In this document: positions 3,727 to 18,766 of the stretch, in pieces
How positions within the stretch are numbered: the first letter of the stretch is position 1
How the letters are laid out: the number at the start of each line of letters is the position of its first letter
Virus record (IMG/VR): IMGVR_UViG_3300025806_000273
Coordinates: 1-21,262 of that record
DNA length: 21,262 bases
Origin: a virus
Direction: 5' to 3' (one strand)
Program-made: the position numbers and the translations under genes
The notes under the pieces: generated by a model
The model's input: only the letters and a program-made list of their open reading frames with translations
What the model was told of the DNA's origin: nothing
Databases searched by the model: none

Positions 3727-3764
3727 CCCTCGCCATCTCCTCATCTCTGGCGGGGGTTTCTTTT
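3727..3764 (+). terminator. Rho-independent terminator closing the packaging operon
   Basis: CCCTCGCCA (3727-3735) pairs with TGGCGGGGG (3748-3756) with one U-G pair and a 12-base loop. TTTCTTTT follows. With the promoter at 3767-3795 immediately downstream, it separates packaging from head transcription. Confidence 0.75.
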
Positions 3765-3766
3765 AC

Positions 3767-3795
3767 TTGCATGAAAACTTGACTAGATGTATAAC
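3767..3795 (+). promoter_or_regulatory. Putative promoter of the head operon
   Basis: TTGCAT (3767-3772) and TATAAC (3790-3795) are spaced by 17 bases. The -10 matches consensus at five of six positions and the -35 at three. It lies directly after a terminator and just before the minigene/portal leader, as expected for independent, stronger expression of head genes. Confidence 0.5.
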
Positions 3796-3826
3796 TATAT
3801 ACATATTGTAATAAGGAGTACATACA

Positions 3827-3889
3827 ATGCCTAAAGGAAAACCCATGGGTTACGGTAAACCAACCAAAAAAATTAAAACAGGTACGTAA
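3827..3889 (+). CDS. Basic minigene before portal, 20 aa
   Basis: ATG 3827 has an excellent Shine-Dalgarno (AAGGAG, about eight bases upstream). The frame encodes only MPKGKPMGYGKPTKKIKTGT before TAA at 3887. The portal ATG lies two bases after this stop and has no convincing RBS of its own, so ribosomes terminating here probably re-initiate on the portal gene. The peptide itself is strongly basic (seven Lys in 20) and might bind DNA or an acidic head protein. It is either a leader for translational coupling or a real minor head peptide. The sequence alone does not distinguish these. Confidence 0.55.
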   Translation: MPKGKPMGYGKPTKKIKTGT

Positions 3890-3891
3890 AT

Positions 3892-5931: not shown

Positions 5932-6152
5932 AGCGTCCCGATAACGATACAATAAAAGTGTTGGCTGCAGCTACGCGCCAACATCCAGCAATACTCTCCT
6001 GGTTCGATAGCTGGTATCAGCACGAGCTAGAGCAGTTGCCTAATATAGGCAGAGAGAACGTGACACGTTCACAGGGGCGGTGTCAAGTTCTCAAAGAGGT
6101 CAGAGACCTTTTAGAAAAGTCCCCTGAATATGCAGCACAGTCTTCCCCATGA
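5928..6152 (+). CDS. Small conserved protein between portal and scaffold, 74 aa
   Basis: Its ATG overlaps the portal stop (ATGA), indicating translational coupling. The product is helical and mixed-charge, with WFDSWYQHELEQLPNI in the middle and an SQGRCQVLKEVRDLLE helix near the C-terminus. A 'QGR.QVL.E' motif in small proteins at this site between portal and scaffold is, from memory, frequent in marine podoviruses. The function is unknown. An assembly cofactor of the portal ring is a guess from position only. Confidence 0.75.
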   Translation: MKRPDNDTIKVLAAATRQHPAILSWFDSWYQHELEQLPNIGRENVTRSQGRCQVLKEVRDLLEKSPEYAAQSSP

Positions 6153-6192
6153 GACAGCTGTTTAATTACGCATACCGATAGGAGCGTTTAAC

Positions 6193-7203
6193 ATGGCAAT
6201 ACCAGCGCAAGTTAGAAAACAGTCTGAGGCTGTTCAGAAATTGTATGATGATCTTAATGAAGATGTTACAGAACAGGATGTTGTATCCGAGGCTGTAGTT
6301 GAAAACATTAAGCCTGACCCAGTGGAAGACACCGACAGTGTAGAACAACAAGCAGTCGAATCTACTAATAACGAGCAAGTAAAAGTAGATGATGTAGATG
6401 AAGAAGAAACATTTGAGAAGAGATATAAGTCTCTTCAAGGAATGTATAATGCTGAAGTACCACGTCTTCACGCCGAAAAGCGTGAACTGGAATCGCGTGT
6501 TTCACAACTAGAAACGTTAATGACAACTTTAAGTGAGCCTAATGTAGCTTCTACTTCACCAGCACAAGTCCTAGTGACAGATGCTGACGTAGAGGAGTAT
6601 GGCGAATCTATAGATGTTATGAGGCGTGTAAGTCGTGAAGAGGCTGCAAGCCAACAGTCGCGCATTGACCAGTTAGAAAATCTTGTACGAGGGATGCAAA
6701 CCAGCGTAGTGCCGCAAGTGCAGCAACTACAGCATAGGCAAGCAGTTACCACGGAACAAGCGTTCTGGGCTGATATTCAGACCGCAGTACCTGACTGGCA
6801 GGAGGTTAACACAGACCCGGAGTTTCAATCCTGGTTACTTGATGTAGACCCTCTAACAGGTATAAGCCGACAAACTTATCTGGATGACGCACAGCGTAAT
6901 CTTGATTCACGGCGTGTGACCAATTTCTTTTCTACATGGAAGACGCAAACTGGCCAGTCTGTTGCTCAACCCAGTCGGCAAGCTACTGCTAATTCACAAC
7001 TTGAGAAACAAGTTGCTCCAGGACGAGGTCGTTCTAGCGCTACTAAAAACTCAGGTGAACCTGCTACTTACTCTTCAAACGATATTAAGAAATTCTTTTC
7101 TGATGTTCAAAAAGGTAAGTATAAAGGGAAAGAGCAAGAGCGTGACCGAAAAGAGCGTGACATTTTCGCTGCACAGCGGGAAGGTCGCATTGTCACTGCA
7201 TAA
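6193..7203 (+). CDS. Scaffolding protein, 336 aa
   Basis: Scaffold guides coat subunits into a prohead and then leaves. An AGGAG sequence precedes ATG 6193 at normal distance. After a short polar start (MAIPAQVRKQSEAVQKLYDD) comes a very acidic segment (about residues 22-72) and a strong coiled coil (about 72-114, EKRYKSLQGMYNAEVPRL onward). A Gln-rich helical middle follows (DQLENLVRGMQTSVVPQVQQ). The C-terminus is basic (about residues 295-336, SSNDIKKFFSDVQKGKYKGK then QREGRIVTA), fitting the coat-binding end of P22-like scaffolds. It sits directly upstream of the coat gene, the usual place. No protease gene is seen nearby, consistent with a P22-like, unprocessed scaffold. Confidence 0.85.
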   Translation: MAIPAQVRKQSEAVQKLYDDLNEDVTEQDVVSEAVVENIKPDPVEDTDSVEQQAVESTNNEQVKVDDVDEEETFEKRYKSLQGMYNAEVPRLHAEKRELESRVSQLETLMTTLSEPNVASTSPAQVLVTDADVEEYGESIDVMRRVSREEAASQQSRIDQLENLVRGMQTSVVPQVQQLQHRQAVTTEQAFWADIQTAVPDWQEVNTDPEFQSWLLDVDPLTGISRQTYLDDAQRNLDSRRVTNFFSTWKTQTGQSVAQPSRQATANSQLEKQVAPGRGRSSATKNSGEPATYSSNDIKKFFSDVQKGKYKGKEQERDRKERDIFAAQREGRIVTA

Positions 7204-7222
7204 TTAAACATAGGAGCCAATC

Positions 7223-8128
7223 ATGGCATTTCCAGTATCCCCAGGTAACCCGGCCTATTCGGGTAACTTTATCCCTGAAATTTGGTCAGGAAAACTAATT
7301 GAGAATTTCTACGATGCAACAGTATTGTCAGCAATCTCAAACACTGCTTACGAAGGTGAAATTCGTAATATGGGTGACACGGTAAATATCCGTACCACAC
7401 CAGAAATCACTATTCGTGATTACGTTAAGGGTCAAACTTTATCAGTAGAGAACCCTGACAAAGCTAAGTTGCAACTTCTAATTGACAAAGGCGAGTACTT
7501 TGCCTGTGTTGAAGACGATGTTGATAACATTCAGTCTGACGTAAACTTAATGGACACATGGTCTAAAGACGCTTCTGAGCGTATGAAAATTAAGATCGAC
7601 CAACGTGTTCTTACTGATATACTTCCAGATATTTCTGCACTTAATAAAGGCGCAACTGCCGGTGCAATTTCTGGTGATATTGATTTGGGTACGCAAGGCG
7701 CACCTGAAGCATTGACTACAACCAATGTAATTGATTTGATTGTTAATATGGGTACAGTATTAGATGAAGCTAATGCTCCTGAATCAGATCGTTACCTTGT
7801 AATTCCAGCTAAGATGGCTGGTTTAATTAAGCGTTCAGACCTTAAAGATGCGTCTATTACTGGTGATTCTACATCGCCTTTACGTAATGGTCGTTTAGGT
7901 ATGATTGATCGGTTCACAGTTTACATGAGCCACAACATCAAGAAAACTGGTGCTAACTTTGACGTTATTGCTGGTCATAAAATGGGTTTCACTTTTGCAT
8001 CACAGATGACAGAAATGGAAACTATTCGCTCCGAATCAACATTCGGCAATATTGTTCGCGGTTTACAAGTGTATGGTTACAAGGTTGTAAAACCTGAAGC
8101 TATCGCTCAAGCCGTTGTAACGCTTTAA
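7223..8128 (+). CDS. Major capsid protein, HK97 fold, 301 aa
   Basis: This is the main shell subunit. It has a strong RBS (TAGGAG). The sequence has the expected pattern: an N-arm (PGNPAYSGNFIPEIWSGKL), an E-loop-like segment (GDTVNIRTTPEITIRDYVKG at about 51-70), a long spine-like helix with KDASERMKIKIDQRVL, and P-domain strands such as RYLVIPAKMAGLIKRSD. An A-domain and final strand follow (GRLGMIDRFTVYMSHNI, then YGYKVVKPEAIAQAVVTL). The PEIWSGKLIE..Y motif near the N-terminus is typical of marine phage coat proteins. It lies 19 bases after scaffold, and its codon use is smooth like a highly expressed gene. No N-terminal delta domain is apparent, so maturation proteolysis is not indicated. 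Confidence 0.93.
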   Translation: MAFPVSPGNPAYSGNFIPEIWSGKLIENFYDATVLSAISNTAYEGEIRNMGDTVNIRTTPEITIRDYVKGQTLSVENPDKAKLQLLIDKGEYFACVEDDVDNIQSDVNLMDTWSKDASERMKIKIDQRVLTDILPDISALNKGATAGAISGDIDLGTQGAPEALTTTNVIDLIVNMGTVLDEANAPESDRYLVIPAKMAGLIKRSDLKDASITGDSTSPLRNGRLGMIDRFTVYMSHNIKKTGANFDVIAGHKMGFTFASQMTEMETIRSESTFGNIVRGLQVYGYKVVKPEAIAQAVVTL

Positions 8129-8143
8129 TCGGAGGTCTGAATT

Positions 8144-8620
8144 ATGGCTACTTATACTGAAGGAACTGGTTTCAATAAAGGAACTGCTGCTATACCCAAT
8201 AATGGGCTTAACAAACTTTCTATGATTGAGGTAACTCTTAACTGGGCTACTATCGCTGCTGATCGTGCAGCTGCAGGTCAAACTGCAATTGGTGCGAACG
8301 ACATCTTAGAAGTTATGCCTATCCCTGCTAAAACTTACGTTATGCAAGTTGGGTTAGATGTTACTACTGCTGAAGGCGGTACTTGTACTGTTGATGTTGG
8401 CGATGCATCAGACCCAGATGGGTTTCTTGATGGTGTGAACGCAAACACTGCTGCATCCTACGCTACTGCGTTGGTATTAGCTGAAGCTGCTCCAAACACT
8501 GTAGTGGGTTACAGCAACGGTAAGTACTACGCCGCTGCAGATACTATTGACATTAAAACTGTTAATGCTGCTGATGCTGCTGTTATGCGCTTATGGGCGC
8601 TAGTTGCAGATTGCAGCTAA
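8144..8620 (+). CDS. Probable head decoration or minor capsid protein, 158 aa
   Basis: A GGAGG Shine-Dalgarno precedes ATG 8144. The product is small, Ala/Thr/Gly-rich and predicted to be beta-rich (ILEVMPIPAKTYVMQVGLDV, then TCTVDVGDASDPDGFLDGVN), with a C-terminal strand pair (ADTIDIKTVNAADAAVMRL). No signal peptide or membrane segment is present. It directly follows the coat gene and is closed by a strong terminator, so it is made with the coat protein at presumably high level, as decoration proteins are. I recognise this type from marine phage genomes where it is listed as structural or hypothetical. The decoration role is inference from context. Confidence 0.7.
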   Translation: MATYTEGTGFNKGTAAIPNNGLNKLSMIEVTLNWATIAADRAAAGQTAIGANDILEVMPIPAKTYVMQVGLDVTTAEGGTCTVDVGDASDPDGFLDGVNANTAASYATALVLAEAAPNTVVGYSNGKYYAAADTIDIKTVNAADAAVMRLWALVADCS

Positions 8621-8634
8621 GTAACTAAAAGATT

Positions 8635-8659
8635 GGGGGCTAACGCCCCCTTTCATCTT
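8635..8659 (+). terminator. Strong rho-independent terminator after the capsid genes
   Basis: GGGGGC (8635-8640) and GCCCCC (8645-8650) form a perfect stem with the tetraloop TAAC, followed by TTTCATCTT. Partial read-through is likely needed, since no clear promoter is visible before the next gene at 8676. This would lower transcript levels of the downstream tail genes relative to coat protein. Confidence 0.85.
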
Positions 8660-8675
8660 ATTTAGGAGATAACAT

Positions 8676-9260
8676 ATGCCTACTAATTTAACTGGTTCGG
8701 ATATAAAAGATACTTACGACCAACTACTACATGTTAGTGATGGCCCTGCTTCAGCTGAAAAAGTAGTACATGGCGGTACAGGTGTTGCTACTGCTTTATC
8801 TATTGGTACAGGGTCTGTTTCTATAGATAATATTAAATTAGATGGCAATGTCATTTCTACTACAAACACTAACGGTAATCTAACTTTAACTCCTAACGGT
8901 ACAGGCGAAGTACAACTTACAGGAAAGTTTGGTTATTCTACAGGTGGCGGTACTGTAACTCAAGCTACAAACAAAACTACAGCAGTAACTTTAAACGCTA
9001 AAAGCGGGCAAATTACTATGAACAATGCAAGTATGTCTAGTAATACTACAGCTGGATTTACACTTACTAATAGTTTTATAGCGGCTACAGATGTTGTTAT
9101 AGTAAACATAGCTAGCGGCGCAACAGCAGATGGGTATATACTTACCGTAGATGCAGTAGCTGCAGGCAGTTGTAGAATTAGTGTACGTCATAATAGTGGC
9201 GGCGCATTAAGCGAAGCACTAGTACTTAATTTTGTAGTTATTAAAGGAGTTACATCTTAA
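8676..9260 (+). CDS. Beta-rich head fibre or tail structural protein, 194 aa
   Basis: TAGGAG precedes ATG 8676. The N-terminal part (TGSDIKDTYDQLLHVSDGP, then a VVHGGTGVAT motif) resembles the start of many phage fibre proteins, followed by a GNLTLTPNGTGEV turn repeat. The C-terminal half (from about 88, STGGGTVTQATNKTTAVTLN, with GQITMNNASM and FTLTNSFIAATDVVIVNI) is a beta-sandwich-like module found, from memory, in many marine phage structural proteins, including head fibres and tail proteins. The protein lies after the capsid terminator and just before the small basic protein run. A trimeric head fibre or tail-needle-like protein is plausible; the exact location in the virion is unknown. 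Confidence 0.65.
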   Translation: MPTNLTGSDIKDTYDQLLHVSDGPASAEKVVHGGTGVATALSIGTGSVSIDNIKLDGNVISTTNTNGNLTLTPNGTGEVQLTGKFGYSTGGGTVTQATNKTTAVTLNAKSGQITMNNASMSSNTTAGFTLTNSFIAATDVVIVNIASGATADGYILTVDAVAAGSCRISVRHNSGGALSEALVLNFVVIKGVTS

Positions 9261-9520
9261 TGGCTAAGTACCAAGGTAAAAGCGTTACCCTTAATAAACC
9301 TAGCAGAATTAGTAAGGGTCAACCAGGATATGGGCGTAAAAAATCTCAGGTTTATGTAAAAGGGAAAAGTGATAAAGTAGTAAAAGTTATGTTCGGTGAT
9401 CCAAACATGACTATTAAAAAAGAACAGCCAGGTAGACGTTCTAATTTTAGAGCGCGTCATAATTGTGATAACCCTGGCCCTAAAACAAAGGCACGATATT
9501 GGTCGTGTAAAGCGTGGTAA
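9260..9520 (+). CDS. Small basic phage protein with RARHNC and YWSCK motifs, 86 aa
   Basis: ATG 9260 shares a base with the previous stop (TAATG), and AAAGGAG stands 11 bases before it. The product is very basic (MAKYQGKSVTLNKPSRISK start). It has a VYVKGKSDKVVKVMFGDPNM strand pair, then FRARHNC and a final YWSCKAW. The His/Cys pair plus the C-terminal Cys/Trp could coordinate a metal, but only two Cys are present. This pattern is common in marine phages and cyanophages, where it can also occur as a terminal domain of larger head proteins. The function is unknown. It is the first of three adjacent small proteins of the same style. Confidence 0.75.
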   Translation: MAKYQGKSVTLNKPSRISKGQPGYGRKKSQVYVKGKSDKVVKVMFGDPNMTIKKEQPGRRSNFRARHNCDNPGPKTKARYWSCKAW

Positions 9521-9521
9521 T

Positions 9522-9692
9522 ATGGCAAAAGGCAAAGCAAAACCTAACAATCCTAAGTTATGGGCAGCAAAAATAAGGGCTGCTAAACAAAAGTTTGATG
9601 TGTACCCTAGTGCGTATGCTAATGCTTGGGCATCTAAACAATATAAACAAGCTGGCGGTACTTGGTCTGGTTCAGATAATAGGGTTAAGTAA
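9522..9692 (+). CDS. Small basic protein, DUF5872-like, 56 aa
   Basis: The frame is open further upstream, but ATG 9522, two bases after the previous stop, gives a product beginning MAKGKAKPNNPKLWAAKIRA, and a start inside the previous gene has no support. The segment WAAKIRAAKQKFDVYPSAYA followed by NAWASKQYKQAGGTW matches my memory of the small family called DUF5872, found in marine phages and some giant viruses; the name is from memory and uncertain. No clear RBS is present, so expression is probably coupled to the upstream gene. The function is unknown; basic charge suggests nucleic acid or capsid contact (inference). Confidence 0.7.
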   Translation: MAKGKAKPNNPKLWAAKIRAAKQKFDVYPSAYANAWASKQYKQAGGTWSGSDNRVK

Positions 9693-9693
9693 T

Positions 9694-9930
9694 ATGGCTA
9701 AAGAAGGTTTAGGTAAATGGTTTGCTGAAAAATGGGTAGACGTAAGTTCAGGCGAACCCTGTGGTAGGTCTACAGCACAAAAAACTTCTAGGGGTTATCC
9801 TGCCTGCCGACCTAAATCTATATCTGATAGGATGACAAAAAAAGAAAAAGATGATATGGCTAGAAAAAAGACTAGTTCTAAACGCCAGAGTTGGCCCGTT
9901 TCGCCTTCAGGTACAAGGAAGACAGTATGA
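9694..9930 (+). CDS. Small basic protein with CGRS/ACRP motifs, possibly DUF6321-like, 78 aa
   Basis: ATG 9694 is one base after the previous stop, again without a strong RBS. The product begins MAKEGLGKWFAEKWVDVSSG, continues with EPCGRSTAQKTSRGYPACRP, and then has a Lys/Arg-rich region (MTKKEKDDMARKKTSSKRQ) and a final SPSGTRKTV. The KWVDVS..PCGRS..RGYPACRP pattern with two Cys is known to me from marine phages and algal giant viruses, probably as DUF6321; the assignment is from memory. The function is unknown. The start could be placed upstream inside the previous gene, but that would lose the conserved MAKEGLGKW beginning. Confidence 0.7.
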   Translation: MAKEGLGKWFAEKWVDVSSGEPCGRSTAQKTSRGYPACRPKSISDRMTKKEKDDMARKKTSSKRQSWPVSPSGTRKTV

Positions 9931-10196
9931 AACAGCGTTGGTTAAAAAATATTAATGACGGTTTTATTTATGGATGGGATGAGTATTTAGAAAAACATCC
10001 TCTTGTAAAAGAAGTTACTGAAGAAGAAGCCTTCCCTGAAAAATTTTTAAAGCCTTTACAAGTAAAACGTGCTAAAGCTACTAGAGCTAAGAATAAATCC
10101 AAGCTAGACCTTACTACTGAAAACGTATTTGAGTCAGCTCCTATTACAACTGCACCAGAGTTAGCTGCTGATGCTTCACGGGGGTTACCTGAATGA
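9927..10196 (+). CDS. Small conserved phage protein, 89 aa
   Basis: ATG 9927 overlaps the preceding stop as ATGA and is preceded by AAGGAAG. The product begins MKQRWLKNINDGFIYGWDEY, continues with LEKHPLVKEVTEEEAFPEKF and becomes Lys/Ala-rich, then Pro/Ala-rich toward the end. A short N-terminal 'W(I/L).N.NDG..Y.W...L..NP' module followed by an EEAFPE segment is frequent among small marine-phage proteins near head-tail genes; it has no function known to me. Its stop overlaps the next ATG by four bases, which places it tightly in the head-completion operon. Confidence 0.7.
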   Translation: MKQRWLKNINDGFIYGWDEYLEKHPLVKEVTEEEAFPEKFLKPLQVKRAKATRAKNKSKLDLTTENVFESAPITTAPELAADASRGLPE

Positions 10197-10870
10197 CACC
10201 GCAAGATGTAATTGATGATGTAAGACAGTTAGTACAAGATACTGACTCTGCGTCTTATAGATACACTGACGCTGAAATGTTAGGGTTTGTTAATCAAACT
10301 GTAAAACGTGTAATTATTTTAAGACCTGATTTATTTTCTACTATAACAACTATAACAACTACGCCAAATACTGTTATACAGTCTATGCCGTCTGACTCGT
10401 TACGGCTTGTAGAACTTTACTCTGTACAAAGTGGTAATGTTTTAACAGAAGTAAATAGAGAATCTTTAGATCAAACTTATCCTGCTTGGGTTAGTGATCC
10501 AGCAGGTACTCCGTATAACTATATGCGCCATGTTAGAAATCCTAATAGATATTTTTTATATCCGCGACCTGTTTCTGGCATTGTAATAACCGGTGAGTAC
10601 GTACAGATACCTGCGGACTATGCTATTGGAGCTACTATTGCATCTCTTCCTGATGCTTATTTACCTGCCTTGGTAGACGGCACTGTGTTTTTAGCTGAGT
10701 CTATTGATGACGAACATGCAAACAATGGTCGTGCTAAATTATTCCTAGATTCATTTACTGCTTCACTTGGCGCAGGCTTGACTAGCCGTGAACTAACCGA
10801 CAGTGAAAGCGGCGGATTAGAACGTGCTAGACGACTAGCAGGGGATAAGTATAAAAGGATGACTGTATAA
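10193..10870 (+). CDS. Head-tail adaptor-like protein (DUF6682-like), 225 aa
   Basis: It begins in an ATGA overlap with the previous gene. The N-terminus (MTPQDVIDDVRQLVQDTDSA, then YRYTDAEMLGFVNQTVKRV) is the helical pattern of ring-forming head-completion adaptors: 'D.R.ll.D.....r.sd.ell.fin.a'. A beta-rich middle follows (SLRLVELYSVQSGNVL, then YFLYPRPVSGIVITGEY), and the end is helical (ARRLAGDKYKRM). I associate this arrangement with a family called DUF6682 in marine phages; the name is from memory. It likely forms the first ring below the portal. It is joined to the next gene by a TAATGG overlap, suggesting 1:1 expression. Confidence 0.7.
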   Translation: MTPQDVIDDVRQLVQDTDSASYRYTDAEMLGFVNQTVKRVIILRPDLFSTITTITTTPNTVIQSMPSDSLRLVELYSVQSGNVLTEVNRESLDQTYPAWVSDPAGTPYNYMRHVRNPNRYFLYPRPVSGIVITGEYVQIPADYAIGATIASLPDAYLPALVDGTVFLAESIDDEHANNGRAKLFLDSFTASLGAGLTSRELTDSESGGLERARRLAGDKYKRMTV

Positions 10871-11541
10871 TGGCCACACGTTCTTATATTTCACTTGCTG
10901 CTAGGATTAACCCTAGCGTACCAGGGTGTTCTTTACCTATGCTAGAACAGTATATTAGAGATGCTTCAATAGCTACATGCGAACGTACTTTAGCGTGGCG
11001 GTATGAACAACCTACATTTAACCTAACACCTGGCGTTTATAAGTATGCTTACAATAAACCGGTAGAAACTACTGTACAAACAGTAATGTACGCCTCACTT
11101 AACGATTCTCCTTTATCGGCAGTTACATTAGAAGACGCTACTCGAAGGTATCCTAACTGGGCAAAAACTTCTACTACTGACGCTGACATAGCTTTGTACG
11201 GCTCACAACCTATGGTGTTTACACAGCTTAGCCCTAATAGTTATATTGTGTTACCAGCTCCAGATGCTGAGGCAACTTATACAATACGTATGATATATGC
11301 TTTAAAACCTAGCCGTGATTCCGAAGGTATGGATGAAGTAATAATGGACGAATTAGAGCCAGCTATAATACATAAAACATTACAAGAACTATTAGTACTC
11401 CCCGGAGTTGCATGGTCTGACAGAGAGTTAGCATCTTATCATGCGAAACAATTTATTTCTAAGGTTTCTGAGTATAGAGCTAATGCAAGCCTAGGTAATA
11501 TGCGTGCTTCAGTTTCTGTGCGTATGCGACCCTTTGCTTAG
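10870..11541 (+). CDS. Head-tail connector or short-tail tube-like protein, 223 aa
   Basis: The start shares a base with the previous stop. The product opens MATRSYISLAARINPSVPGC, followed by SLPMLEQYIRDASIATCERT and LAWRYEQP, a signature common in marine podovirus proteins located after the adaptor. The middle is beta-rich (YKYAYNKPVETTVQTVMYAS, then YIVLPAPDAEATYTIRMIYA). The C-terminal part is helical (LEPAIIHKTLQELLVLPG and YHAKQFISKVSEYRANA). The general arrangement is that of stopper or tail-nozzle-like proteins. It probably assembles with the 225-aa adaptor. No detailed family can be named with certainty. Confidence 0.65.
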   Translation: MATRSYISLAARINPSVPGCSLPMLEQYIRDASIATCERTLAWRYEQPTFNLTPGVYKYAYNKPVETTVQTVMYASLNDSPLSAVTLEDATRRYPNWAKTSTTDADIALYGSQPMVFTQLSPNSYIVLPAPDAEATYTIRMIYALKPSRDSEGMDEVIMDELEPAIIHKTLQELLVLPGVAWSDRELASYHAKQFISKVSEYRANASLGNMRASVSVRMRPFA

Positions 11542-11550
11542 GAGACCGTT

Positions 11551-11898
11551 ATGGATGCAAGACTTTCAACCCCTCGAATAGAATTAGTAAGCAGCGATAC
11601 AGGGCCTCAACTTCAGTTTACTGTTACTGATAGTTTAACTGGTGCGGCTGTTGATCTTACTAATGCTACTGTAACAATGCACTTTCGCGCTGTCGGAACT
11701 ACTACTAATTTGTTTAGTAGAACGTGCGCCGTTTCTTCTCCTCCTGCAGATGGAGTGGCTGTCTTATCATGGCAAAGCACTGACCTTAACCGCGCTGCTG
11801 GAGATTACGAAGGTGAATTAGAAACAGTACTATCTGATGGCACTAGACAAACTGTATATGATACAATTCAGTTTAGATTGCGAGAGGACTTTGCGTGA
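11551..11898 (+). CDS. BppU-N-like baseplate/tail domain protein, 115 aa
   Basis: TAGGAG precedes ATG 11551. The whole protein looks like a single Ig-like beta-sandwich: PQLQFTVTDSLTGAAVDLTN, then ATVTMHFRAVGTTTNLFSRT, GVAVLSWQSTDLNRAAGDYE and GELETVLSDGTRQTVYDTIQ. The 'vDLTgAtV.f.mr ... G.v.y.w...Dt...G.Y..e.eV...dG...' pattern is that of the N-terminal domain of baseplate upper protein BppU, which in other phages holds receptor-binding proteins. Here it stands alone and could be a fibre-attachment hub. It overlaps the next gene (GTGA). Confidence 0.55.
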   Translation: MDARLSTPRIELVSSDTGPQLQFTVTDSLTGAAVDLTNATVTMHFRAVGTTTNLFSRTCAVSSPPADGVAVLSWQSTDLNRAAGDYEGELETVLSDGTRQTVYDTIQFRLREDFA

Positions 11899-12704
11899 AG
11901 ATAAGAGCCACTACGCAACAAATACGGGCTAGAGTAACTACTACCGCGTTTAACCTTGCTACGAGGGCTACAAATTTTGCGTTAACTACACGAGCGCACG
12001 CCTACAAAATAAAAATAGAAGTAGGACATTTTTTAAGTTTAAAGTTTTTTACTGAAACTATATCTATACTATCTTTACCTGCATTGTTTTTTAACAAAGC
12101 GGGTATAACTGATTCAGCTACTATAGATGATACAACTGTACTAGACCCTAACAAAGGTATTACAGACACTACTACAGTTAGTGAAGTATTTGCTAAAGTG
12201 CAGGATAAAGGTTTTACAGATAGATTTAGTATTGAAGATGGCGGGTTATATTTTTTAGAAGATTATACTTCTATTGATTATACTGCCGGTACACAGCCTA
12301 TACTTTCTATGGGTAAAAATATATCAGACTCTGCAGGGTTTAGTGATGTAATAGGTAACTTTAGTATAACTAAAGGTATAGTTGATATACCTATGTTTAC
12401 TGATGGTATAGCCTTAAATAAAAGCAAATTAATAGAAACAGATACTGCAAATGTATCAGAAGCATATGCAGCGTTGTTTAGTAATTCAGCTACTGATGGG
12501 ATAACAGTTGCCGAAAACTTTATTACGTTGTATAGTAAGGGTGTGGCTGATAGTGCTGCTTGGTCTGACATCTCTTCATTGGTGATTGGCCCTGTTGTGC
12601 AGGATGCTTTAAATACATCAGACTCAGGTAGTCTAAGGTCGCAAGGTTATTGTAGCTTTGACTATTTTGCAGCAGACTATGTTGGAACTTCGTTAACCTT
12701 CTAA
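11895..12704 (+). CDS. Repeat-containing tail structural protein, 269 aa
   Basis: Starts with GTG at 11895, overlapping the previous stop; GAGAGG is about eight bases upstream. The N-terminus is basic and helical (RATTQQIRARVTTTAFNLAT). From about residue 65 the protein consists of a degenerate repeat of roughly 18-21 residues with the core K-G-(I/F/V)-x-D-(S/T)-x-x-(V/F)-S-(D/E), for example AGITDSATIDDTTVLD, KGITDTTTVSEVFAK, KNISDSAGFSDVI and KGVADSAAWSDISSL. The end contains YCSFDYFAADYVG. I know similar repeat proteins from marine phage tail modules, without a function. A fibrous or spike-shaft role is inferred. Confidence 0.6.
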   Translation: MKIRATTQQIRARVTTTAFNLATRATNFALTTRAHAYKIKIEVGHFLSLKFFTETISILSLPALFFNKAGITDSATIDDTTVLDPNKGITDTTTVSEVFAKVQDKGFTDRFSIEDGGLYFLEDYTSIDYTAGTQPILSMGKNISDSAGFSDVIGNFSITKGIVDIPMFTDGIALNKSKLIETDTANVSEAYAALFSNSATDGITVAENFITLYSKGVADSAAWSDISSLVIGPVVQDALNTSDSGSLRSQGYCSFDYFAADYVGTSLTF

Positions 12705-12715
12705 GGGGTATGGCA

Positions 12716-13177
12716 ATGAACTCAAAAGAAAACTTAGGTCTATCCGGGAAGCTGACGCTTGTCCTAACTGATAGCAATGGTCGTGTAAAAGAAGAACGAC
12801 ACCTAAAAAATTTAATCGTAAACGCAGGCTTAGGCCATATAACTAGTCGTATGACTGCAGCATCCTCAGATGTAATGTCTCATATGGCTTTAGGTAGCGG
12901 CTCAACTGCTGCTGCTGCAGGCAATACAGCACTCGGCTCTCAATTAGGTAGTCGCGTAACTTTTACTAGTGCAACACGTAGCGGCTCTAACAATGAAAGT
13001 ATTGCATATGTTACTACTTTTGGCGCAGGTGTAGCTACAGGTGCAGTAACCGAAGCAGGTATTTTTAATGCTTCTTCTTCTGGTACAATGCTTTGTCGTA
13101 CCGTATTTGCTGTAGTTAACAAAGGTTCAGGTGACACACTACAAGTTACATGGACAGTTACATTAGCAGCTTCGTGA
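12716..13177 (+). CDS. Tail fibre/structural protein, 153 aa
   Basis: Two starts are possible. ATG 12710 lies only one base after AAGGGG, so ATG 12716 with a seven-base gap is preferred. The product has LGLSGKLTLVLTDSNGRVKE then RHLKNLIVNAGLGHITSRMT, a signature widespread in phage structural proteins (N-L-(I/V)-x-(N/T)-x-G-L). After that come Gly/Ala/Ser-rich strands including ALGSQLGSRVTFTSATRSGS, an AVTEAGIFNASSSGTML motif and TLQVTWTVTL. The 'itEAGIFn' motif plus a C-terminal '.W.i.l' strand is typical of this family. It lies between the repeat protein and the fibre genes, so a small collar or fibre-base protein is likely. Confidence 0.65.
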   Translation: MNSKENLGLSGKLTLVLTDSNGRVKEERHLKNLIVNAGLGHITSRMTAASSDVMSHMALGSGSTAAAAGNTALGSQLGSRVTFTSATRSGSNNESIAYVTTFGAGVATGAVTEAGIFNASSSGTMLCRTVFAVVNKGSGDTLQVTWTVTLAAS

Positions 13178-13185
13178 GGTAACTA

Positions 13186-13539
13186 ATGGCAACTATTGTA
13201 ACTAGATCAGGTAAAGGCTCACCGCTTACAAACGGAGAAGTAGACGCTAACTTTAATAATCTTAATAGTGATAAAGTTGAAACGTCTACTATATCTGGGT
13301 TTGGGGCAACGCTCATTGATGATGCAAATGCAACAGCAGCTAGGATTACATTGGGCGTAGGTACAATAGCTGTACAAGCTGCAAACAACGTAGACATAGA
13401 CGGAGGTAGTATTACTGGCATTACAGATTTAGCTGTAGCCGATGGTGGTACTGGCGCGTCAAATATATCTGCTGCGCAAACAAACTTACAAGTAGACCCT
13501 GCCGGAACTGCGGTAGCTCTAGCAATCGCATTGGGATAA
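13186..13539 (+). CDS. Short fibre-domain protein, 117 aa
   Basis: GAGGT precedes ATG 13186. The N-terminus (SGKGSPLTNGEVDANFNNLN, then SDKVET) is the short anchor repeated in many phage fibres. Further on, ATLIDDANATAARITLGVGT and LAVADGGTGASNISAAQTNL are the shaft motifs 'llDDad.a..r.tLg' and 'DGGTGAs....ar.nL' common in tail fibres. At 117 residues it is far shorter than an ordinary fibre: only the anchor and first shaft motifs are present. It may be a free fibre base to which another protein joins, or a shortened remnant. The frame is intact with normal signals. Confidence 0.65.
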   Translation: MATIVTRSGKGSPLTNGEVDANFNNLNSDKVETSTISGFGATLIDDANATAARITLGVGTIAVQAANNVDIDGGSITGITDLAVADGGTGASNISAAQTNLQVDPAGTAVALAIALG

Positions 13540-13545
13540 TATATC

Positions 13546-13884
13546 ATGGCTAATACATTTAAAGTAAAAACTTTTGGTGGAGGCAGCACAAACGCTAATA
13601 CAGCAATGACAGTGTATACTGCACCTTCTAGTACATCGACAACAATAATTGGTCTTACAATAGCAAACATTATTGCTACACAAGTACTGGTTAGTGTTCA
13701 GTTAGAAAACAATGACGGTAACAACGTATATTTAATTAAAGATGCGCCAATATCTTCAGGTGGTTCGTTTGTTCCTATAGGCGGTGACCAAAAAGTTGTT
13801 ATGGAAGCATCCGATATTTTAAAAGTTACTTCTAATACGGCAAATTCTGTCGATAGCACATTGAGTATTTTGGAGATCACCTAA
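13546..13884 (+). CDS. Small beta-rich phage structural protein, 112 aa
   Basis: The start lies six bases after the previous stop, with a weak GGGAT upstream. The product is a compact beta protein: MANTFKVKTFGGGSTNANTA, then TVYTAPSSTSTTIIGLTIAN, VSVQLENNDGNNVYLIKDAP, and PIGGDQKVVMEASDILKVTS. The pattern is that of small conserved virion proteins of marine phages ('vyt.p.gttatvigl.lan......v.v.l......y.l.....ip.gs....gg.k.vl..gD.l.v'). Fold and position suggest a trimeric or ring-forming tail-tip protein, but no function is established to my knowledge. Its stop shares bases with the next start (TAATG). Confidence 0.65.
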   Translation: MANTFKVKTFGGGSTNANTAMTVYTAPSSTSTTIIGLTIANIIATQVLVSVQLENNDGNNVYLIKDAPISSGGSFVPIGGDQKVVMEASDILKVTSNTANSVDSTLSILEIT

Positions 13885-15029
13885 TGCCATATCAAGGTAA
13901 TACACCAGTAGAATCTTATATAGCTACTGTAAAAGATTCGTTTAATGGTAACGGTTCTACTACTGCTTTTACAATGTCAAAACCGACACAGGTAAATGAC
14001 GTTAGGGTAGTTGTAGAAAATGTTATTCAAGACCCATCTGTAGCATATACTGTATCAGGAACTACGATTACCTTTACATCTGCTCCCCCCTCTGGGACAA
14101 ATAATATATATGTAATACATCTTGGCCCTGCTGTAGCAACAGCACAACCTCCCGCTGAAATAGCTGATGCTACTACGTTTGCATCTAATGTATCTGTGCA
14201 AGGTTCGTTTACCTCACCAGGTATTGACGATAACGCAGACGCAGTGGCACTTACGATTGACAGTTCAGAAGTCGTACTTGTCGGTAAAACATCTAATACA
14301 TTTTCTCAACAGGGCGTAGCATTACGCGCTAACAACGACAGCCAAATTACACGAGATGGCGGTAACCCGCTTAGTTTAAACCGGACATCTAATGATGGTG
14401 ATATTGCTAAGTTCTTTAAAGACGGCTCTGCTGTAGGTAGTATTCAATCTCGTGGAGGCACAGTAAGCACACTTATTCTTGACCCAAGAACTAATGGAGG
14501 TGGTCTTACTGGGACAGCAAATGCAGTAATGCCTACCAGTAATGCAGGTGTAATAGGAGATGCTAATACATCGCTAGACTTGGGTGCAAGTGGATATGCC
14601 TTTAGGAACGCTTACCTATCAGGCGGTGTATACCTCGGTGGCACTGGGTCGGCTAATAAGTTGGACGATTATGAAGAAGGGACTTTTCAGTTAACAATGA
14701 CTGGCAAAACTGGTGGTGCTGTAGGGTCTGGACGGTATGTTGTGGTAGGCAATATTTGTCATTTTAGTTGGTATAGTGGTACTCAAAGTATTACTAGCTC
14801 AGTAGCAGGGGTGTTAAGTGGTTTGCCTTTTACTCATGTCAGTACTGGAAATAGTGCGTATGCAGCCGTTATTCTTGCTCACAATACTTGGGTATCAGAT
14901 GCACCTACAGGATACATAAACCTAGGAACTACTTCAATATACCCTACTGCTCTTAATAATACATACGCAAGCAATACGTCTACTGGAAGTAAAGCCGTTA
15001 TGTGTTCAGGAAGTTATACAATAGCGTAA
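13884..15029 (+). CDS. Tail fibre protein, 381 aa
   Basis: GGAG lies seven bases before ATG 13884. Residues about 15-80 form a phage tail-attachment domain (DSFNGNGSTTAFTMSKPTQV, then VENVIQDPSVAYTVSGTTIT and FTSAPPSGTNNIYVIHLGPA), the 'D.f.gdG.tt.F.L....v..v.V.v.Gv.q.p..dYtvsgttitFt.aPp.G' pattern found at the N-terminus of many podovirus fibres. A shaft follows with ADAVALTIDSSEVVLVGKTS and SLDLGASGYAFRNAYLSGGV. The C-terminal domain (from about 250, DDYEEGTFQLTMTGKTG onward) is a compact beta domain probably forming the tip. There is no S74 chaperone domain. It is one of several alternative adsorption proteins here. Confidence 0.8.
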   Translation: MPYQGNTPVESYIATVKDSFNGNGSTTAFTMSKPTQVNDVRVVVENVIQDPSVAYTVSGTTITFTSAPPSGTNNIYVIHLGPAVATAQPPAEIADATTFASNVSVQGSFTSPGIDDNADAVALTIDSSEVVLVGKTSNTFSQQGVALRANNDSQITRDGGNPLSLNRTSNDGDIAKFFKDGSAVGSIQSRGGTVSTLILDPRTNGGGLTGTANAVMPTSNAGVIGDANTSLDLGASGYAFRNAYLSGGVYLGGTGSANKLDDYEEGTFQLTMTGKTGGAVGSGRYVVVGNICHFSWYSGTQSITSSVAGVLSGLPFTHVSTGNSAYAAVILAHNTWVSDAPTGYINLGTTSIYPTALNNTYASNTSTGSKAVMCSGSYTIA

Positions 15030-15070
15030 CCCACTCAGAGATTGGGTCGGACAGGTGGCAATAACGCCAC
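15029..15070 (+). other. Two small hairpins in the 64-base gap before the next gene
   Basis: ACCCA/TGGGT (15029-15033 with 15043-15047) and GTGGC/GCCAC (15055-15059 with 15066-15070) can each fold as five-pair stems. No U-run follows, so these are not classical terminators. This is one of the longest gaps in the fibre region. Confidence 0.4.
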
Positions 15071-15093
15071 GATAAACAACATAGGAGGCCAAT

Positions 15094-15372
15094 ATGGCAC
15101 TAACAAAAGTAATAACAGAAGATAAAATTGAAGTCGTTGGAGATCACAAAAATATTCAAGTGAGAACCAAAACCTCGGTTATGGAAGATGGTGTAGAACT
15201 ATCATCAGGTTTCCATCGTCACGTCTTATCTTGCTCAACTAAATCAGGTGATACATGGGCAGACACTGACATCAGTAAGCAGTCAACCGAAGTGAAAGCA
15301 ATATGCAATGCAGTTTGGACAGACGCAGTGAAGACTGCATACCAGACAGCTATGGATGCAGCAGAAATATAA
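15094..15372 (+). CDS. Small conserved phage protein, 92 aa
   Basis: AGGAGG before ATG 15094 is one of the best ribosome binding sites in the window. The product begins MALTKVITEDKIEVVGDHKN, continues IQVRTKTSVMEDGVELSSGF with RHVLSC, and has a helical C-terminus (VKAICNAVWTDAVKTAYQTA). The 'I.V.....iQVRt.T.i.EDG.E.s...hR.vl.p' pattern is frequent in marine phages next to fibre genes, with no known function to me. It might be a tail or chaperone-like accessory protein. It is preceded by a hairpin-containing gap and leads the gene group with the two S74 fibres. Confidence 0.75.
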   Translation: MALTKVITEDKIEVVGDHKNIQVRTKTSVMEDGVELSSGFHRHVLSCSTKSGDTWADTDISKQSTEVKAICNAVWTDAVKTAYQTAMDAAEI

Positions 15373-15385
15373 GGGATAGTAGCCA

Positions 15386-16843
15386 ATGACTAAATCAAGA
15401 GATACAGCCAATATAATTAAACAGCCATTTACACAAACTCTTGGTACGTCAAACTATAGAGCAGGTGTTAACGCAGGTAACTCAATAGCATCTGGCGGTA
15501 ACTACAACGTGGTTGTGGGTGACGAAGCAGGTACTGCTATTACGACGGGGGATGACAATGTAGCTATTGGCTTTGAGGCACTTAAAGCAGAAGATACTAC
15601 AAAAGGCGCAACTGCTGTAGGGTATCGTGCTTTACTACAACAAAACTTAGGTTCAGACGGCTACAATGTAGCAGTAGGACACAGCGCAGGTATTTCTAAC
15701 ACTACAGGTGTTTCTAACACTTTTATTGGTGGTTTTTCAGCAGGTAGCGCAACAGTAACAGGGGCAAGCAATACAGCAGTTGGTAGAAACTCTTTATATG
15801 CTCTAACTTCGGGTACTCAAAATGTGGCGATAGGTGCTTTAGCTGGCGATGCAATTACGACAGGTTCTTACAATGTAGCATTAGGTAAGTCAGCATTAGA
15901 AAACAACACCACCGCAAGTAACAACACTGCTGTTGGGCATCAAGCTGGGTATGATAATACTACTGGTTCTGCTTTAACTGCTGTTGGGACTGCCGCACTT
16001 GATGCAAACACAACGGGTATAGACAACACAGCGGTTGGTGTAAGTGCATTAGGTGGTAATACTACAGGTAATTATAATGTGGCTGTCGGAAGAATGGCTT
16101 TATTAGACAGCACCACCGCCTCAAACAACACTGCTGTTGGGTATCAGGCGGGGTATCTTAATACTACTGCTTCCAACAATGCTTTTTTAGGGTATCGAGC
16201 TGGTTATTCAACAACCACAGGTAATCTTAACACATTTGTTGGAAATGATAGTGGCTACTCAATGACTACAGGCACTAAGAACACCATCCTTGGACGTTAC
16301 AACGGCAACCAAGGCGGCCTAGACATCCGCACCTCAAGCAACCACATCGTGCTGTCTGATGGGGATGGTAATCCTAGAGTAAATATTTACAACGGAAGAA
16401 TAGGGTTTGCTAATGGCAACCTTACTGCTCATGGTAATTTTATAGGAGAAGTCGGTAGTTCAAACAGAGCATTAGCCTTTGAACATACTACTAATGGAGG
16501 AGTTGTTGGAACAGTAACAACAGGTAGTTCATCTGTTTCTTATAACACCTCCTCAGACCACCGCCTAAAAGAAAACGTAGACTACACATGGGATGCTACA
16601 ACTAGATTAAAGCAACTCAAGCCAGCAAGGTTTAACTTTATTGCTGATCCAGATACTACAGTCGATGGTTTCTTGGCTCACGAAGCACAGGCAGTTGTAC
16701 CAGAGTGTGTAACTGGAGCTAAAGATGCAGTCGATGCAGATGGCAACCCAGAGTACCAAGGCATAGATCAGTCTAAACTTGTACCACTATTAGTAAAAAC
16801 AATCCAAGAGCTAGAGGCTCGTATTACAGCACTGGAGGCTTAA
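15386..16843 (+). CDS. Tail fibre with YadA-head-like repeats and S74 chaperone domain, 485 aa
   Basis: A receptor-binding fibre candidate. The start MTKSRDTANII is a short anchor seen in many phage fibres. From about residue 25 to 300 there are some fifteen 17-residue repeats (NVAVGRMALLDSTTASN, NTAVGYQAGYLNTTASN), matching the left-handed beta-roll of YadA-type heads. The C-terminal 96 residues are a peptidase S74 intramolecular chaperone. It begins with SDHRLK at S390, where Ser and Lys have the five-residue spacing of the catalytic pair in endosialidase-type domains, and ends in a coiled coil (LLVKTIQELEARITALEA). Self-cleavage before S390 would release the mature trimeric fibre of about 389 residues. 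One 59-bp stretch is nearly identical to the next gene. Confidence 0.85.
   Translation: MTKSRDTANIIKQPFTQTLGTSNYRAGVNAGNSIASGGNYNVVVGDEAGTAITTGDDNVAIGFEALKAEDTTKGATAVGYRALLQQNLGSDGYNVAVGHSAGISNTTGVSNTFIGGFSAGSATVTGASNTAVGRNSLYALTSGTQNVAIGALAGDAITTGSYNVALGKSALENNTTASNNTAVGHQAGYDNTTGSALTAVGTAALDANTTGIDNTAVGVSALGGNTTGNYNVAVGRMALLDSTTASNNTAVGYQAGYLNTTASNNAFLGYRAGYSTTTGNLNTFVGNDSGYSMTTGTKNTILGRYNGNQGGLDIRTSSNHIVLSDGDGNPRVNIYNGRIGFANGNLTAHGNFIGEVGSSNRALAFEHTTNGGVVGTVTTGSSSVSYNTSSDHRLKENVDYTWDATTRLKQLKPARFNFIADPDTTVDGFLAHEAQAVVPECVTGAKDAVDADGNPEYQGIDQSKLVPLLVKTIQELEARITALEA
15905..15963 (+). repeat. 59-bp near-identical repeat shared by the two S74 fibres, copy 1
   Basis: Bases 15905-15963 match 17678-17736 with only two mismatches (positions 27 and 50 of the block). 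The block encodes one 17-residue shaft repeat (NTAVGHQAGY...). It is longer than one repeat unit (51 bp) and much more alike than neighbouring units, consistent with recent exchange between the two genes. Confidence 0.85.
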
Positions 16844-16846
16844 AGA

Positions 16847-18766
16847 ATGGCATATCAAGGACGACAACCGGGAGTAGGTGTACGAAACCGCTTCATCTAT
16901 TCTGCCACAAATGGTCAGACGTCCTTTAGCGGCGCTGACAGTAACGGGCTAACACTCGCCTACGCAGACGCAACATATGTCGATGTATTTTTAAACGGGG
17001 TACTTCTCGTTCCCGTATCAGATTACGCGGCCACAACTAAAACGTCCGTGGTCCTTGGATCGGGAGCCGCGGCTTCTGACATTGTGGAGATTGTAGCGTA
17101 TGAGATTAGTTCTATAGCTAACGCGGTTCCGACATCGGGCGGTACGTTTACAGGCGCGGTTACTGTTCAAGGTAACTTCTCCGCGGACGGCGGCACAATC
17201 AAGCTAGACGGGAACTATCCCAATGGTGTTAATAACGTAGCTCTAGGTAACACTGCTTTAGATACTGCAAGTGGATCAAATGGTTATTCAGTTGCTATTG
17301 GTACTAACGCTTTAACTGCCATGACAAGTGGCGGCTCAAACGTGGCTGTTGGTTATGCTTCTGCTGTGGCAATGACAACTGGCGGTAACAACGTGGCTGT
17401 TGGTACAGAAGCATTGGATGCTACTACAACAGGTGGTAGCAATGTTGCGATAGGTTCAGCCGCATTAGGTTCAAACACCACCGCAAGCAACAATACTGCG
17501 GTTGGCTATGATTCTTTAAAAGATAATACTACAGGCGCACAAAATACAGGTATTGGTATGTATGCCCTAGCAAATAACACTACTGCTTCAGATAACTTTG
17601 CAGGGGGATATAACGCATTAGGCGCTAACACTACAGGTAGCAACAATGTCGGTATAGGCCATCGTGCATTACAAGCAAACACCACCGCAAGTAACAACAC
17701 TGCGGTTGGGCATCAAGCTGGGTATGCTAATACTACAGGTGCTGACAACGTAGCAGTAGGATACCTATCTTTATCAACGGAAACTGGTGGACAAAATAAC
17801 GTAGCTGTTGGTCGTAGTGCTTTAGAAAATCAAGTTAATTCTTCGGGTAATATTTACAACACAGCAGTTGGAGCAAAAGCAGGTAGAGCAGTAACCACAG
17901 GCACTCGAAATACCCTTATCGGTGGCATTGCAGGAGATGCTCTTACTACTGGTGGTGACAATACTGTACTTGGATACAACGCATTAACCTCTGATACTTT
18001 AGGAAGTAAATCTGTTGCAATCGGACGATCAGTTTTATCTAGTCAAAACTTTACATCAGCTACAGACACTTACAACACAGCAGTGGGTTATGGCGCAGGT
18101 GGGCAAGTAACAACAGGCATAAAAAACACCCTCATTGGTGGCATTGCAGGTGATAATATAACTACTGGGATTGAAAACGTAGTTGTTGGTTACAATTCTA
18201 TGAATGCAGTATCTGGTGATTCAAACATTATTGTTGGTTCAAACTCAAGCAATTCTTCTACAACTGTTAATACAGAATATGTAATTGGAAGAGCGGCATC
18301 AGGAAGCGGCACTAATACTTTTACAATTGGTCGTGGTGACACTGATGTTCAAATAAATCTTGATGGCTCTGACACTAGTTGGAGTGCTACATCCGATGAA
18401 AGATTAAAACATAATATTAATCCACTATCTGTAGGATTAGATTTCATAGATGAGCTAAGACCAGTTACTTATGAGTGGAAAGAAAAAAAAGATATAGACC
18501 CAAGTTTGGGCAGATATTATGAAGAAAACTCTACTGAACCTTGCAGGGGCGATGGCGGTATTCATTATGGTCTTATTGCTCAAGAAGTAAAAACAGTAAT
18601 AGATAAATATTCTTTAACTGGAAGACATAATATCTGGAAAGAAGGTGTAGGTGGGTTTCAAGTTGTGGGTTTAGGTAACGTCATGCCCATGCTTATTAAA
18701 GCCGTACAAGAATTATCAGCAAAGAACGATGCATTAGAAGCACGTATCGCAACCCTAGAAGGATAA
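16847..18766 (+). CDS. Second S74 tail fibre with YadA-head-like repeats, 639 aa
   Basis: GGAGG precedes ATG 16847, three bases after the previous gene. Residues 1-120 are a different anchor: RNRFIYSATNGQTSFSGADS, then LAYADATYVDVFLNGVLLVP, a podovirus fibre attachment domain. Its DNA is visibly richer in G/C than the rest. From about 125 to 490 a long series of 17-residue repeats follows (NVAVGTEALDATTTGGS, NTAVGHQAGYANTTGAD). The last 124 residues are an S74 chaperone beginning SDERLK at S516, with Ser and Lys five apart, and ending in a coiled coil (QELSAKNDALEARIATLEG). Mature fibre length would be about 515. The chaperone differs clearly from that of the neighbour, so the pair are mosaic, not simple duplicates. 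Confidence 0.87.
   Translation: MAYQGRQPGVGVRNRFIYSATNGQTSFSGADSNGLTLAYADATYVDVFLNGVLLVPVSDYAATTKTSVVLGSGAAASDIVEIVAYEISSIANAVPTSGGTFTGAVTVQGNFSADGGTIKLDGNYPNGVNNVALGNTALDTASGSNGYSVAIGTNALTAMTSGGSNVAVGYASAVAMTTGGNNVAVGTEALDATTTGGSNVAIGSAALGSNTTASNNTAVGYDSLKDNTTGAQNTGIGMYALANNTTASDNFAGGYNALGANTTGSNNVGIGHRALQANTTASNNTAVGHQAGYANTTGADNVAVGYLSLSTETGGQNNVAVGRSALENQVNSSGNIYNTAVGAKAGRAVTTGTRNTLIGGIAGDALTTGGDNTVLGYNALTSDTLGSKSVAIGRSVLSSQNFTSATDTYNTAVGYGAGGQVTTGIKNTLIGGIAGDNITTGIENVVVGYNSMNAVSGDSNIIVGSNSSNSSTTVNTEYVIGRAASGSGTNTFTIGRGDTDVQINLDGSDTSWSATSDERLKHNINPLSVGLDFIDELRPVTYEWKEKKDIDPSLGRYYEENSTEPCRGDGGIHYGLIAQEVKTVIDKYSLTGRHNIWKEGVGGFQVVGLGNVMPMLIKAVQELSAKNDALEARIATLEG
17678..17736 (+). repeat. 59-bp near-identical repeat shared by the two S74 fibres, copy 2
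   Basis: The second copy of the block at 15905-15963, in direct orientation about 1.77 kb away and in the same reading register. Recombination between the copies would fuse the first fibre's anchor to the second fibre's chaperone in frame. Confidence 0.85.

What the first reader, a model, noticed from the sequence alone, without database searches (positions are those of the whole stretch)
15386..18766. Tandem S74 fibres sharing recombinable 51-bp repeat shafts
Both fibres have 17-residue (51-bp) repeats and S74 domains with intact Ser/Lys (S390/K395 and S516/K521), but different anchors and chaperones. A 59-bp block is identical except for two bases (15905-15963, 17678-17736) and lies in the same codon register. 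Recombination between the direct repeats would exchange anchors, shaft length and chaperone without frame loss, a possible source of rapid tail variation.
Basis: partly seen in the sequence, partly recalled or inferred. Interest (0 to 1): 0.6.

Follow-up and report, generated by a model that had tools for sequence, protein, structure and literature searches.

The report
Tandem phage tail fibres swapping tips
Two neighbouring tail-fibre genes of an uncultured aquatic virus of bacteria share a short identical stretch, and otherwise near-identical relatives have exchanged the host-contacting ends of these fibres at or near that stretch, showing that these viruses reshuffle their fibre tips faster than the rest of the genome changes.

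Summary
A (15386-16843, 485 aa) and B (16847-18766, 639 aa) are tandem S74 fibres with intact SDxRLK (S390/K395, S516/K521). The 59-bp block is 57/59 identical and in frame. It holds the only exact A/B repeats of 18 bp or more (26 and 22 bp). G002 matches the window with no mismatch over 14,505 bp, then differs by 12 bases, all inside the block (15937-15954), where the window carries B's sequence; it later switches tip and chaperone and lacks gene B. L091 matches the window with no mismatch over 5,716 bp, then crosses from A to B within the 22-bp repeat. L299/L300, a different backbone, carry A-anchor/B-chaperone plus B-anchor/A-chaperone, a reciprocal swap. Contig L424 repeats the tandem-to-single change in that second backbone. 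Exchange also uses a conserved shaft cap (16263-16386) and the C-terminal coil. Shaft-length variants in 51-bp steps were not found. The kind is known (modular fibre recombination at conserved motifs). The variant is exchange between two tandem fibres of one genome, caught at base resolution. Reads and function remain untested.

The parts
15094..15372 (+). 92-aa conserved gene upstream of the fibre pair (marks position 1 in relatives)
   Evidence: phrog_6228 E=3e-24; precedes gene A or its substitutes in the contigs compared
15386..16843 (+). Fibre gene A, 485 aa
15386..15505 (+). Anchor of A (residues 1-40), fixed at position 1
   Evidence: identical or near-identical in G002, G003, L091, L299, L423, L424; no similarity to the B anchor
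15506..16285 (+). A shaft of 17-residue units, about one predicted beta strand per unit
   Evidence: unit list; AF2 model, pLDDT about 49-92 over the shaft
15905..15963 (+). 59-bp block, A copy
   Evidence: 57/59 identical to 17678-17736
15932..15953 (+). 22-bp exact repeat GTTGGGCATCAAGCTGGGTATG: A-to-B crossover interval of L091 and L299/L300/L345
15937..15954 (+). 18-bp patch with all 12 differences between window and G002 in 1432-16324; window is B-like up to 15953; contig G003 ends at 15936
16263..16386 (+). Shaft cap (NTILGRYNGNQGGLDIR..VLSDGDGNPR), shared exchange point; G002 switches at 16378
   Evidence: about 89-96% DNA identity in unrelated phage contigs; 92.9% in Roseobacter phage CRP-1
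16387..16552 (+). A tip between cap and S74, least conserved part of the distal half, probable receptor-binding tip
   Evidence: no invariant or nearly invariant residue between N329 and S390 in 27 sequences; replaced in L222/L423 between conserved cap and chaperone
16553..16840 (+). S74 chaperone of A, predicted cleavage before S390
   Evidence: Pfam PF13884 28.2 bits; Foldseek to MyRF ICA 7dc3
16820..16843 (+). 3' end of A, retained at the end of gene 1 in L299 after B's distal half
   Evidence: 24-bp exact match
16847..18766 (+). Fibre gene B, 639 aa; absent in G002 and L424
16847..17233 (+). Anchor and neck of B (residues 1-129), fixed at position 2
17234..18226 (+). B shaft of 17-residue units
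17678..17736 (+). 59-bp block, B copy; contains 17705-17726, the exact 22-bp repeat
18392..18763 (+). S74 chaperone of B, predicted cleavage before S516
   Evidence: Pfam PF13884 55.3 bits
18698..18766 (+). C-terminal coil of B, third exchange point; ends the single fibre of G002 and of L424
18771..19016 (+). 81-aa gene following B (or following the single fused fibre)

Best explanation
A and B are two trimeric-type tail fibres, each anchor - shaft of 17-residue units - cap - tip - S74 chaperone, the last presumably cleaved off after folding. The anchors are gene-specific and stay in place. The distal halves (shaft end, tip, chaperone) are interchangeable cassettes, because the two genes share homology in the same reading frame at the shaft block (15905-15963), a conserved cap and a terminal coil. 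Ordinary homologous recombination between A and B, within one genome or between co-infecting phages, patches the shaft, swaps distal halves reciprocally, or deletes the middle to leave one fused fibre. Shown: base-resolved mosaics among assembled contigs, in frame, on near-identical backbones. Inferred: that general homologous recombination made them, that the tips bind receptors, and that exchange alters host range.
For: Window and G002 show no mismatch over 1432-15936. All 12 differences up to 16324 fall in 15937-15954, inside the block, where the window has B's exact 17 bases (15937-15953); G002 then changes tip and chaperone at 16378, rejoins B's coil at 18698 and lacks gene B. L091 equals the window over 10238-15953, then follows B; its distal part equals that of L345 and L299. 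L299/L300 (99.97% identical over 14 kb, two metagenomes) carry A-anchor/S74-B and B-anchor/S74-A, with exact tracts of 641, 484, 377, 260 and 217 bp shared with the window in new order. L423 and L424 match over 6,136 bp with one mismatch, then split in the A shaft; L424 is a single fibre ending in B's coil. The 26- and 22-bp repeats of the block are the longest A/B exact repeats and host both the patch and the crossover. Contigs also stop at these places: G003 at 15936, L091 and L345 at the equivalents of 18332-18334.
Against: All evidence is from metagenome assemblies; no reads, isolates or rates. The polarity of the G002/window patch is unresolved: base 15954 (A) matches neither B nor G002 (both C). 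The distal parts of G002 and L424 are not the B of the window or of L423, so donors outside these genomes are needed and exchange within one genome is not proven. Enrichment of the NTTASNNTAVG unit at junctions is weak (22/113 against 7.7% for segments of 200 bp or more; not significant at 120 bp or more) and partly trivial, since conserved units lengthen apparent homology. No recombinase was identified in the congener G008 beyond a PD-(D/E)XK exonuclease.
Confidence: 0.82

Rival explanations
1. Assembly artefact: the chimeric fibres were made by metagenome assemblers joining different phages or the two genes at the shared repeats.
For: All contigs are metagenome assemblies; contigs break at the variable points (G003 at 15936; L091 and L345 near 18332-18334), so the assemblers did meet branches there. 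Window and L299 share a 641-bp exact stretch in which an L091 join could hide.
Against: The A-to-B junction recurs at the same bases in four contigs from four metagenome ids (L299, L300, L345, L091). L299 and L300 agree at 99.97% over 14 kb including both swapped genes. The exact A/B homology is only 22-26 bp, and all complete products stay in frame with complete S74 ends. The G002 patch is 18 bp flanked by perfect identity on both sides, not a path switch.
Confidence: 0.08
2. Exchange happens only between phages: whole fibre alleles or distal cassettes come from co-infecting relatives, and A/B homology within one genome plays no special part.
For: L091 has the window backbone but L299's gene 1 over 1,247 identical bp. 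The distal modules of G002 and L424 come from elsewhere. The cap is shared among unrelated phages. Many other fibre genes share long identical stretches and then split.
Against: Gene 1 and gene 2 of L299 carry the other gene's distal half relative to the window, so material has crossed between paralogous positions at least once; the window's patch equals its own B sequence over 17 bases; the crossover lies in the longest A/B repeat.
Confidence: 0.4
3. Similar blocks arose by selection on protein sequence (convergence or conserved function of the NTTASNNTAVGHQAGY unit), not by recombination.
For: NTTASNNTAVG is a common unit (433 of 5,595 units), and its 31-bp DNA form occurs in 20 viral contigs.
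Against: 17 of 19 amino-acid-identical codons are identical against a 39% background; 357 distinct DNA forms of the unit exist; the mosaics on identical backbones cannot come from convergence.
Confidence: 0.02
4. A dedicated diversification machine (diversity-generating retroelement or DNA invertase) makes the changes.
For: Changes are concentrated in the adhesin gene, as in such systems.
Against: Patch changes are not limited to adenines; no inverted repeats of note flank the genes and both lie in the same orientation; none of the window proteins scanned matches a reverse transcriptase or invertase family. Only 21 kb of the genome is held.
Confidence: 0.03

Closest known systems
T-even phage distal tail-fibre locus (gp37/gp38), recombination between conserved motifs swapping adhesin specificity (Tetart et al. 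1998, seen here only as reference 50 of PMC7468147)
   Same: Conserved shaft motifs serve as homology for swapping distal adhesin parts in frame
   Different: Here two tandem S74 fibres of one genome exchange with each other, the chaperone is part of the cassette, and the sites are 17-residue shaft units, a cap and a C-terminal coil
Ackermannviridae (Kuttervirus) multi-tailspike loci (PMC8432352, abstract and highlights only)
   Same: Several receptor-binding proteins per phage; [quoted passage not shown]
   Different: Those are tailspikes; here near-clonal genomes localise the events to 22 bp and show a reciprocal swap and gene fusion
Metaviromic islands / flexible modules of aquatic phages (PMC3909814, PMC7468147)
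   Same: Near-identical phage cores carrying different tail-fibre variants in nature
   Different: Those studies do not, in the passages read, resolve crossover points or exchange between paralogous fibres of one genome
Bdellovibrio MAT fibres (PMC10769870)
   Same: Mosaic trimeric fibres, many ending in an S74 chaperone with SDxxxK motif
   Different: Cellular predator fibres; in the passages read, not shown to recombine at shaft repeats

Membership tests
S74 intramolecular chaperone / auto-protease (Pfam PF13884) | Profile match above the curated cut-off | tested here: met
   28.2 and 55.3 bits against 22
S74 intramolecular chaperone / auto-protease (Pfam PF13884) | Catalytic Ser-Lys in SDxxxK, C-terminal position | tested here: met
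   S390/K395, S516/K521; S390, D391, R393, K395 invariant in 27 relatives
S74 intramolecular chaperone / auto-protease (Pfam PF13884) | Fold of the intramolecular chaperone domain | tested here: met
   Model of A: Foldseek to MyRF ICA 7dc3, E 2.9e-3, prob 1.00; weaker to 3gw6, E 1.0. B was not modelled.
S74 intramolecular chaperone / auto-protease (Pfam PF13884) | Autocleavage and trimerisation | not testable with these tools
   Needs expression or virion mass spectrometry
Modular recombining tail-fibre locus (T-even type) | Conserved N-terminus with alternative distal parts on near-identical genomes | tested here: met
   window / G002 / L091; L423 / L424
Modular recombining tail-fibre locus (T-even type) | Junctions fall in shared, in-frame motifs | tested here: met
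   22-bp repeat, cap, coil
Modular recombining tail-fibre locus (T-even type) | Host range changes with the swap | not testable with these tools
   No isolate
Diversity-generating retroelement | Adenine-specific substitutions and a reverse transcriptase | tested here: not met
   12 patch changes involve all bases; no RT match among window proteins scanned; window is a partial genome
Invertible fibre cassette | Inverted repeats around alternative fibre ends | tested here: not met
   Only two weak inverted pairs, 22 and 17 nt at 82%; A and B in direct orientation
51-bp shaft-length variation | Near-identical fibre genes differing by multiples of 51 bp in the shaft | tested here: inconclusive
   47 gene pairs sharing at least 250 24-mers; only 51-bp shift found is in the neck of L093 against L105/L118

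The most novel reading that the evidence does not exclude
The tandem pair works as a built-in combinatorial switch: two position-specific anchors plus a pool of distal cassettes are reshuffled between the two genes of one genome by short shaft repeats (patching, reciprocal swap, reversible tandem-to-fused change) often enough that clonal phage populations carry several tip combinations at once.
Probability: 0.25. Interest if true: 0.75.

Novelty: new variant of a known kind. Interest (0 to 1): 0.58.

Why it matters
Tail-fibre variation between nearly identical phages is known from metagenomes, but the exchange points are rarely seen. Here several near-clonal pairs, one with no mismatch over 14.5 kb, place the events inside a 22-bp repeat and show distal halves moving between two fibres of one phage. 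This gives a concrete, checkable route by which a phage with two fibres could generate new tip combinations without losing reading frame or the match between tip and chaperone, and exact junction sequences to look for in reads.

Tried and rejected
Shaft-length variants in 51-bp steps: none found in shafts; the one 51-bp indel is in the neck. Enrichment of NTTASNNTAVG units at junctions: modest for long segments, vanishing at 120 bp or more, and biased by conservation; not used as a main argument. Solved-structure sequence search: no meaningful hit. Foldseek: only the chaperone end matched; the shaft gave no confident hit from a monomer model of mean pLDDT 71. NCBIfam: nothing. Rfam and tRNA scans: nothing. 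Search for a recombinase in congener G008: PD-(D/E)XK exonuclease, PolA, helicase, primase, but no recognised annealase among proteins scanned. Origin of the G002 and L424 distal modules: not found among held loci beyond the coil. DGR, inversion and convergence were considered and rejected.
Full report
OBSERVATION. Genes A (15386-16843) and B (16847-18766) are tandem and co-directional. The 59-bp block is 57/59 identical and in the same frame. Within the two genes the only exact shared stretches of 18 bp or more are the 26-mer and 22-mer that make up this block. The block pair is an outlier among 460 A-B unit pairs (48/51 against a mean of 20.9) and in codon identity (17/19 against 39%). The other 51-bp units are diverged. 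The 17-residue period is general to this class of fibre: 3,216 of the motif spacings in 234 genes are 17.

NEAR-CLONAL COMPARISONS. Contig 3300022178_000179 (G002) shows no mismatch to the window from 1432 to 15936. It then differs at 12 positions, all in 15937-15954, is again identical to 16324, shows three changes at 16325-16343, and at 16378 switches to an unrelated tip with a different S74 domain (SDSRVK). It rejoins window sequence at 18698, in the coil that ends gene B, and continues into the 81-aa gene that follows B; gene B itself is missing. In the patch the window has B's exact 17 bases from 15937 to 15953. At 15931 it has the A-type base, and at 15954 a base that neither B nor G002 has, so the direction of change is open. 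Contig 3300007229_000189 (G003), identical to the window apart from five bases at positions 8-14, ends at 15936, the last base before the patch. Contig 3300006029_000794 (L091) is identical to the window from 10238 to 15953; its next base is B's, and it runs on as B-type shaft. Its crossover therefore lies within the 22-bp repeat, 15932-15953.

RECIPROCAL SWAP. Contigs 3300025853_001412 and 3300008012_000132 (L299, L300; 99.97% over 14 kb) belong to another backbone, about 68% identical to the window at 13411-14444 and without matches further upstream in the stretch held. Their gene 1 is identical to A from 15386 to 15953, then B from 17705 through the B chaperone to 18733 (with some divergence in the shaft part), and ends with A's last 24 bases. 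Their gene 2 starts as B (identical 16847-17196), has another shaft with a 217-bp stretch identical to B's, and ends with A's cap, tip and chaperone (16298-16830, in exact pieces of 260, 74, 68 bp and shorter). Relative to the window the two chaperones have changed places while both anchors kept theirs. Contig L345 (3300013010_000417) carries the same gene 1 junction and stops within 2 bp of where L091 stops, at the end of the B shaft.

A SECOND TANDEM-TO-SINGLE PAIR. Contig 3300020595_000456 (L222/L423) has A-anchor with an A-type chaperone plus B-anchor with a fourth chaperone type (SDRRLK). Contig 3300020169_000458 (L424) matches it with one mismatch over 6,136 bp, splits from it inside the A shaft and is a single 678-aa fibre that ends in B's coil, again without gene B. 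This repeats the window/G002 situation on the second backbone.

FURTHER EXCHANGE POINTS. The cap (16263-16386) is shared at about 89-96% DNA identity with many unrelated viral contigs and at 92.9% with the cultured Roseobacter phage CRP-1. Between the cap and S390 no residue is invariant or nearly invariant in 27 relatives, while cap and S74 are conserved. L222 gene 1 keeps A's cap and chaperone but has another tip. Other fibre genes in the sample share long identical stretches and then split, for example L097/L114 at an NTTASNNTAVG unit after 2.7 kb and L105/L118 after 929 bp. Statistical enrichment of that unit at junctions is weak and partly circular.

MECHANISM. The simplest account is ordinary homologous recombination at short in-frame homologies, producing patches, swaps and fusions. 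Whether partners are the two genes of one genome or genes of co-infecting phages is not settled. L091 clearly involved material identical to L299's, and the distal modules of G002 and L424 have no donor among held sequences. But material has crossed between gene-1 and gene-2 positions at least once, and the crossover sits in the longest A/B repeat. The congener G008 (53 kb; its segment L017 is about 81% and 75% identical to the window over two long stretches) encodes a PD-(D/E)XK exonuclease, PolA, helicase and primase; no annealase was recognised among the proteins scanned. Function of the tips as receptor binders is inferred from position and variability.

STRUCTURE. An AlphaFold2 model of A (mean pLDDT 71) shows roughly one beta strand per 17-residue unit and matches the MyRF chaperone domain at its C-terminus. 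The shaft has no confident structural match.

LIMITS. All data are assemblies. Artefact is unlikely, because the same base-level junction is seen in four contigs from four metagenome ids and the two swapped-gene contigs agree over 14 kb, but reads were not available and the independence of the samples was not checked. No rate, host range or cleavage was measured. The predicted 51-bp shaft-length variants were not seen; one 51-bp indel lies in the neck of another phage group.

KNOWN CONTEXT. Modular exchange of fibre ends at conserved motifs is known (T-even phages, cited as reference 50 in PMC7468147), as are swapped tailspike modules (PMC8432352) and variable fibre regions on near-identical aquatic phages (PMC3909814, PMC7468147). 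I file this as a new variant of a known kind.

Noticed in passing
window 1-1580: About 1.5 kb at the contig start with few ORFs and several imperfect 9-bp tandem arrays (AATCTAACT at 445-474 and 555-582; TATTGCTAC at 787-806); no Rfam or tRNA match.
   Followed up: partly
L093:3440-5599 against L105/L118: Near-identical fibre genes differing by exactly 51 bp (17 residues, ITNLDVVDIDGNLDVDG) in the neck, flanked by an imperfect LDVDG direct repeat.
   Followed up: partly
   Followed up: partly
L206:5666-7558 and 7870-10053: An unrelated viral contig also carries two S74 repeat fibres close together on one strand, so tandem S74 pairs may be common.
   Followed up: no
window 13884-15029: A further fibre-like gene (phrog_18673) just upstream of the pair, starting MPYQG like the B anchor MAYQG, but with no significant BLASTP similarity to B.
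   Followed up: partly
window 7223-8128: Major capsid protein: closest annotated phages are Rhizobium phages RHph_TM3_14A and relatives at 51.5% identity, so the window phage belongs to a group without close isolates in the collection searched.
   Followed up: no
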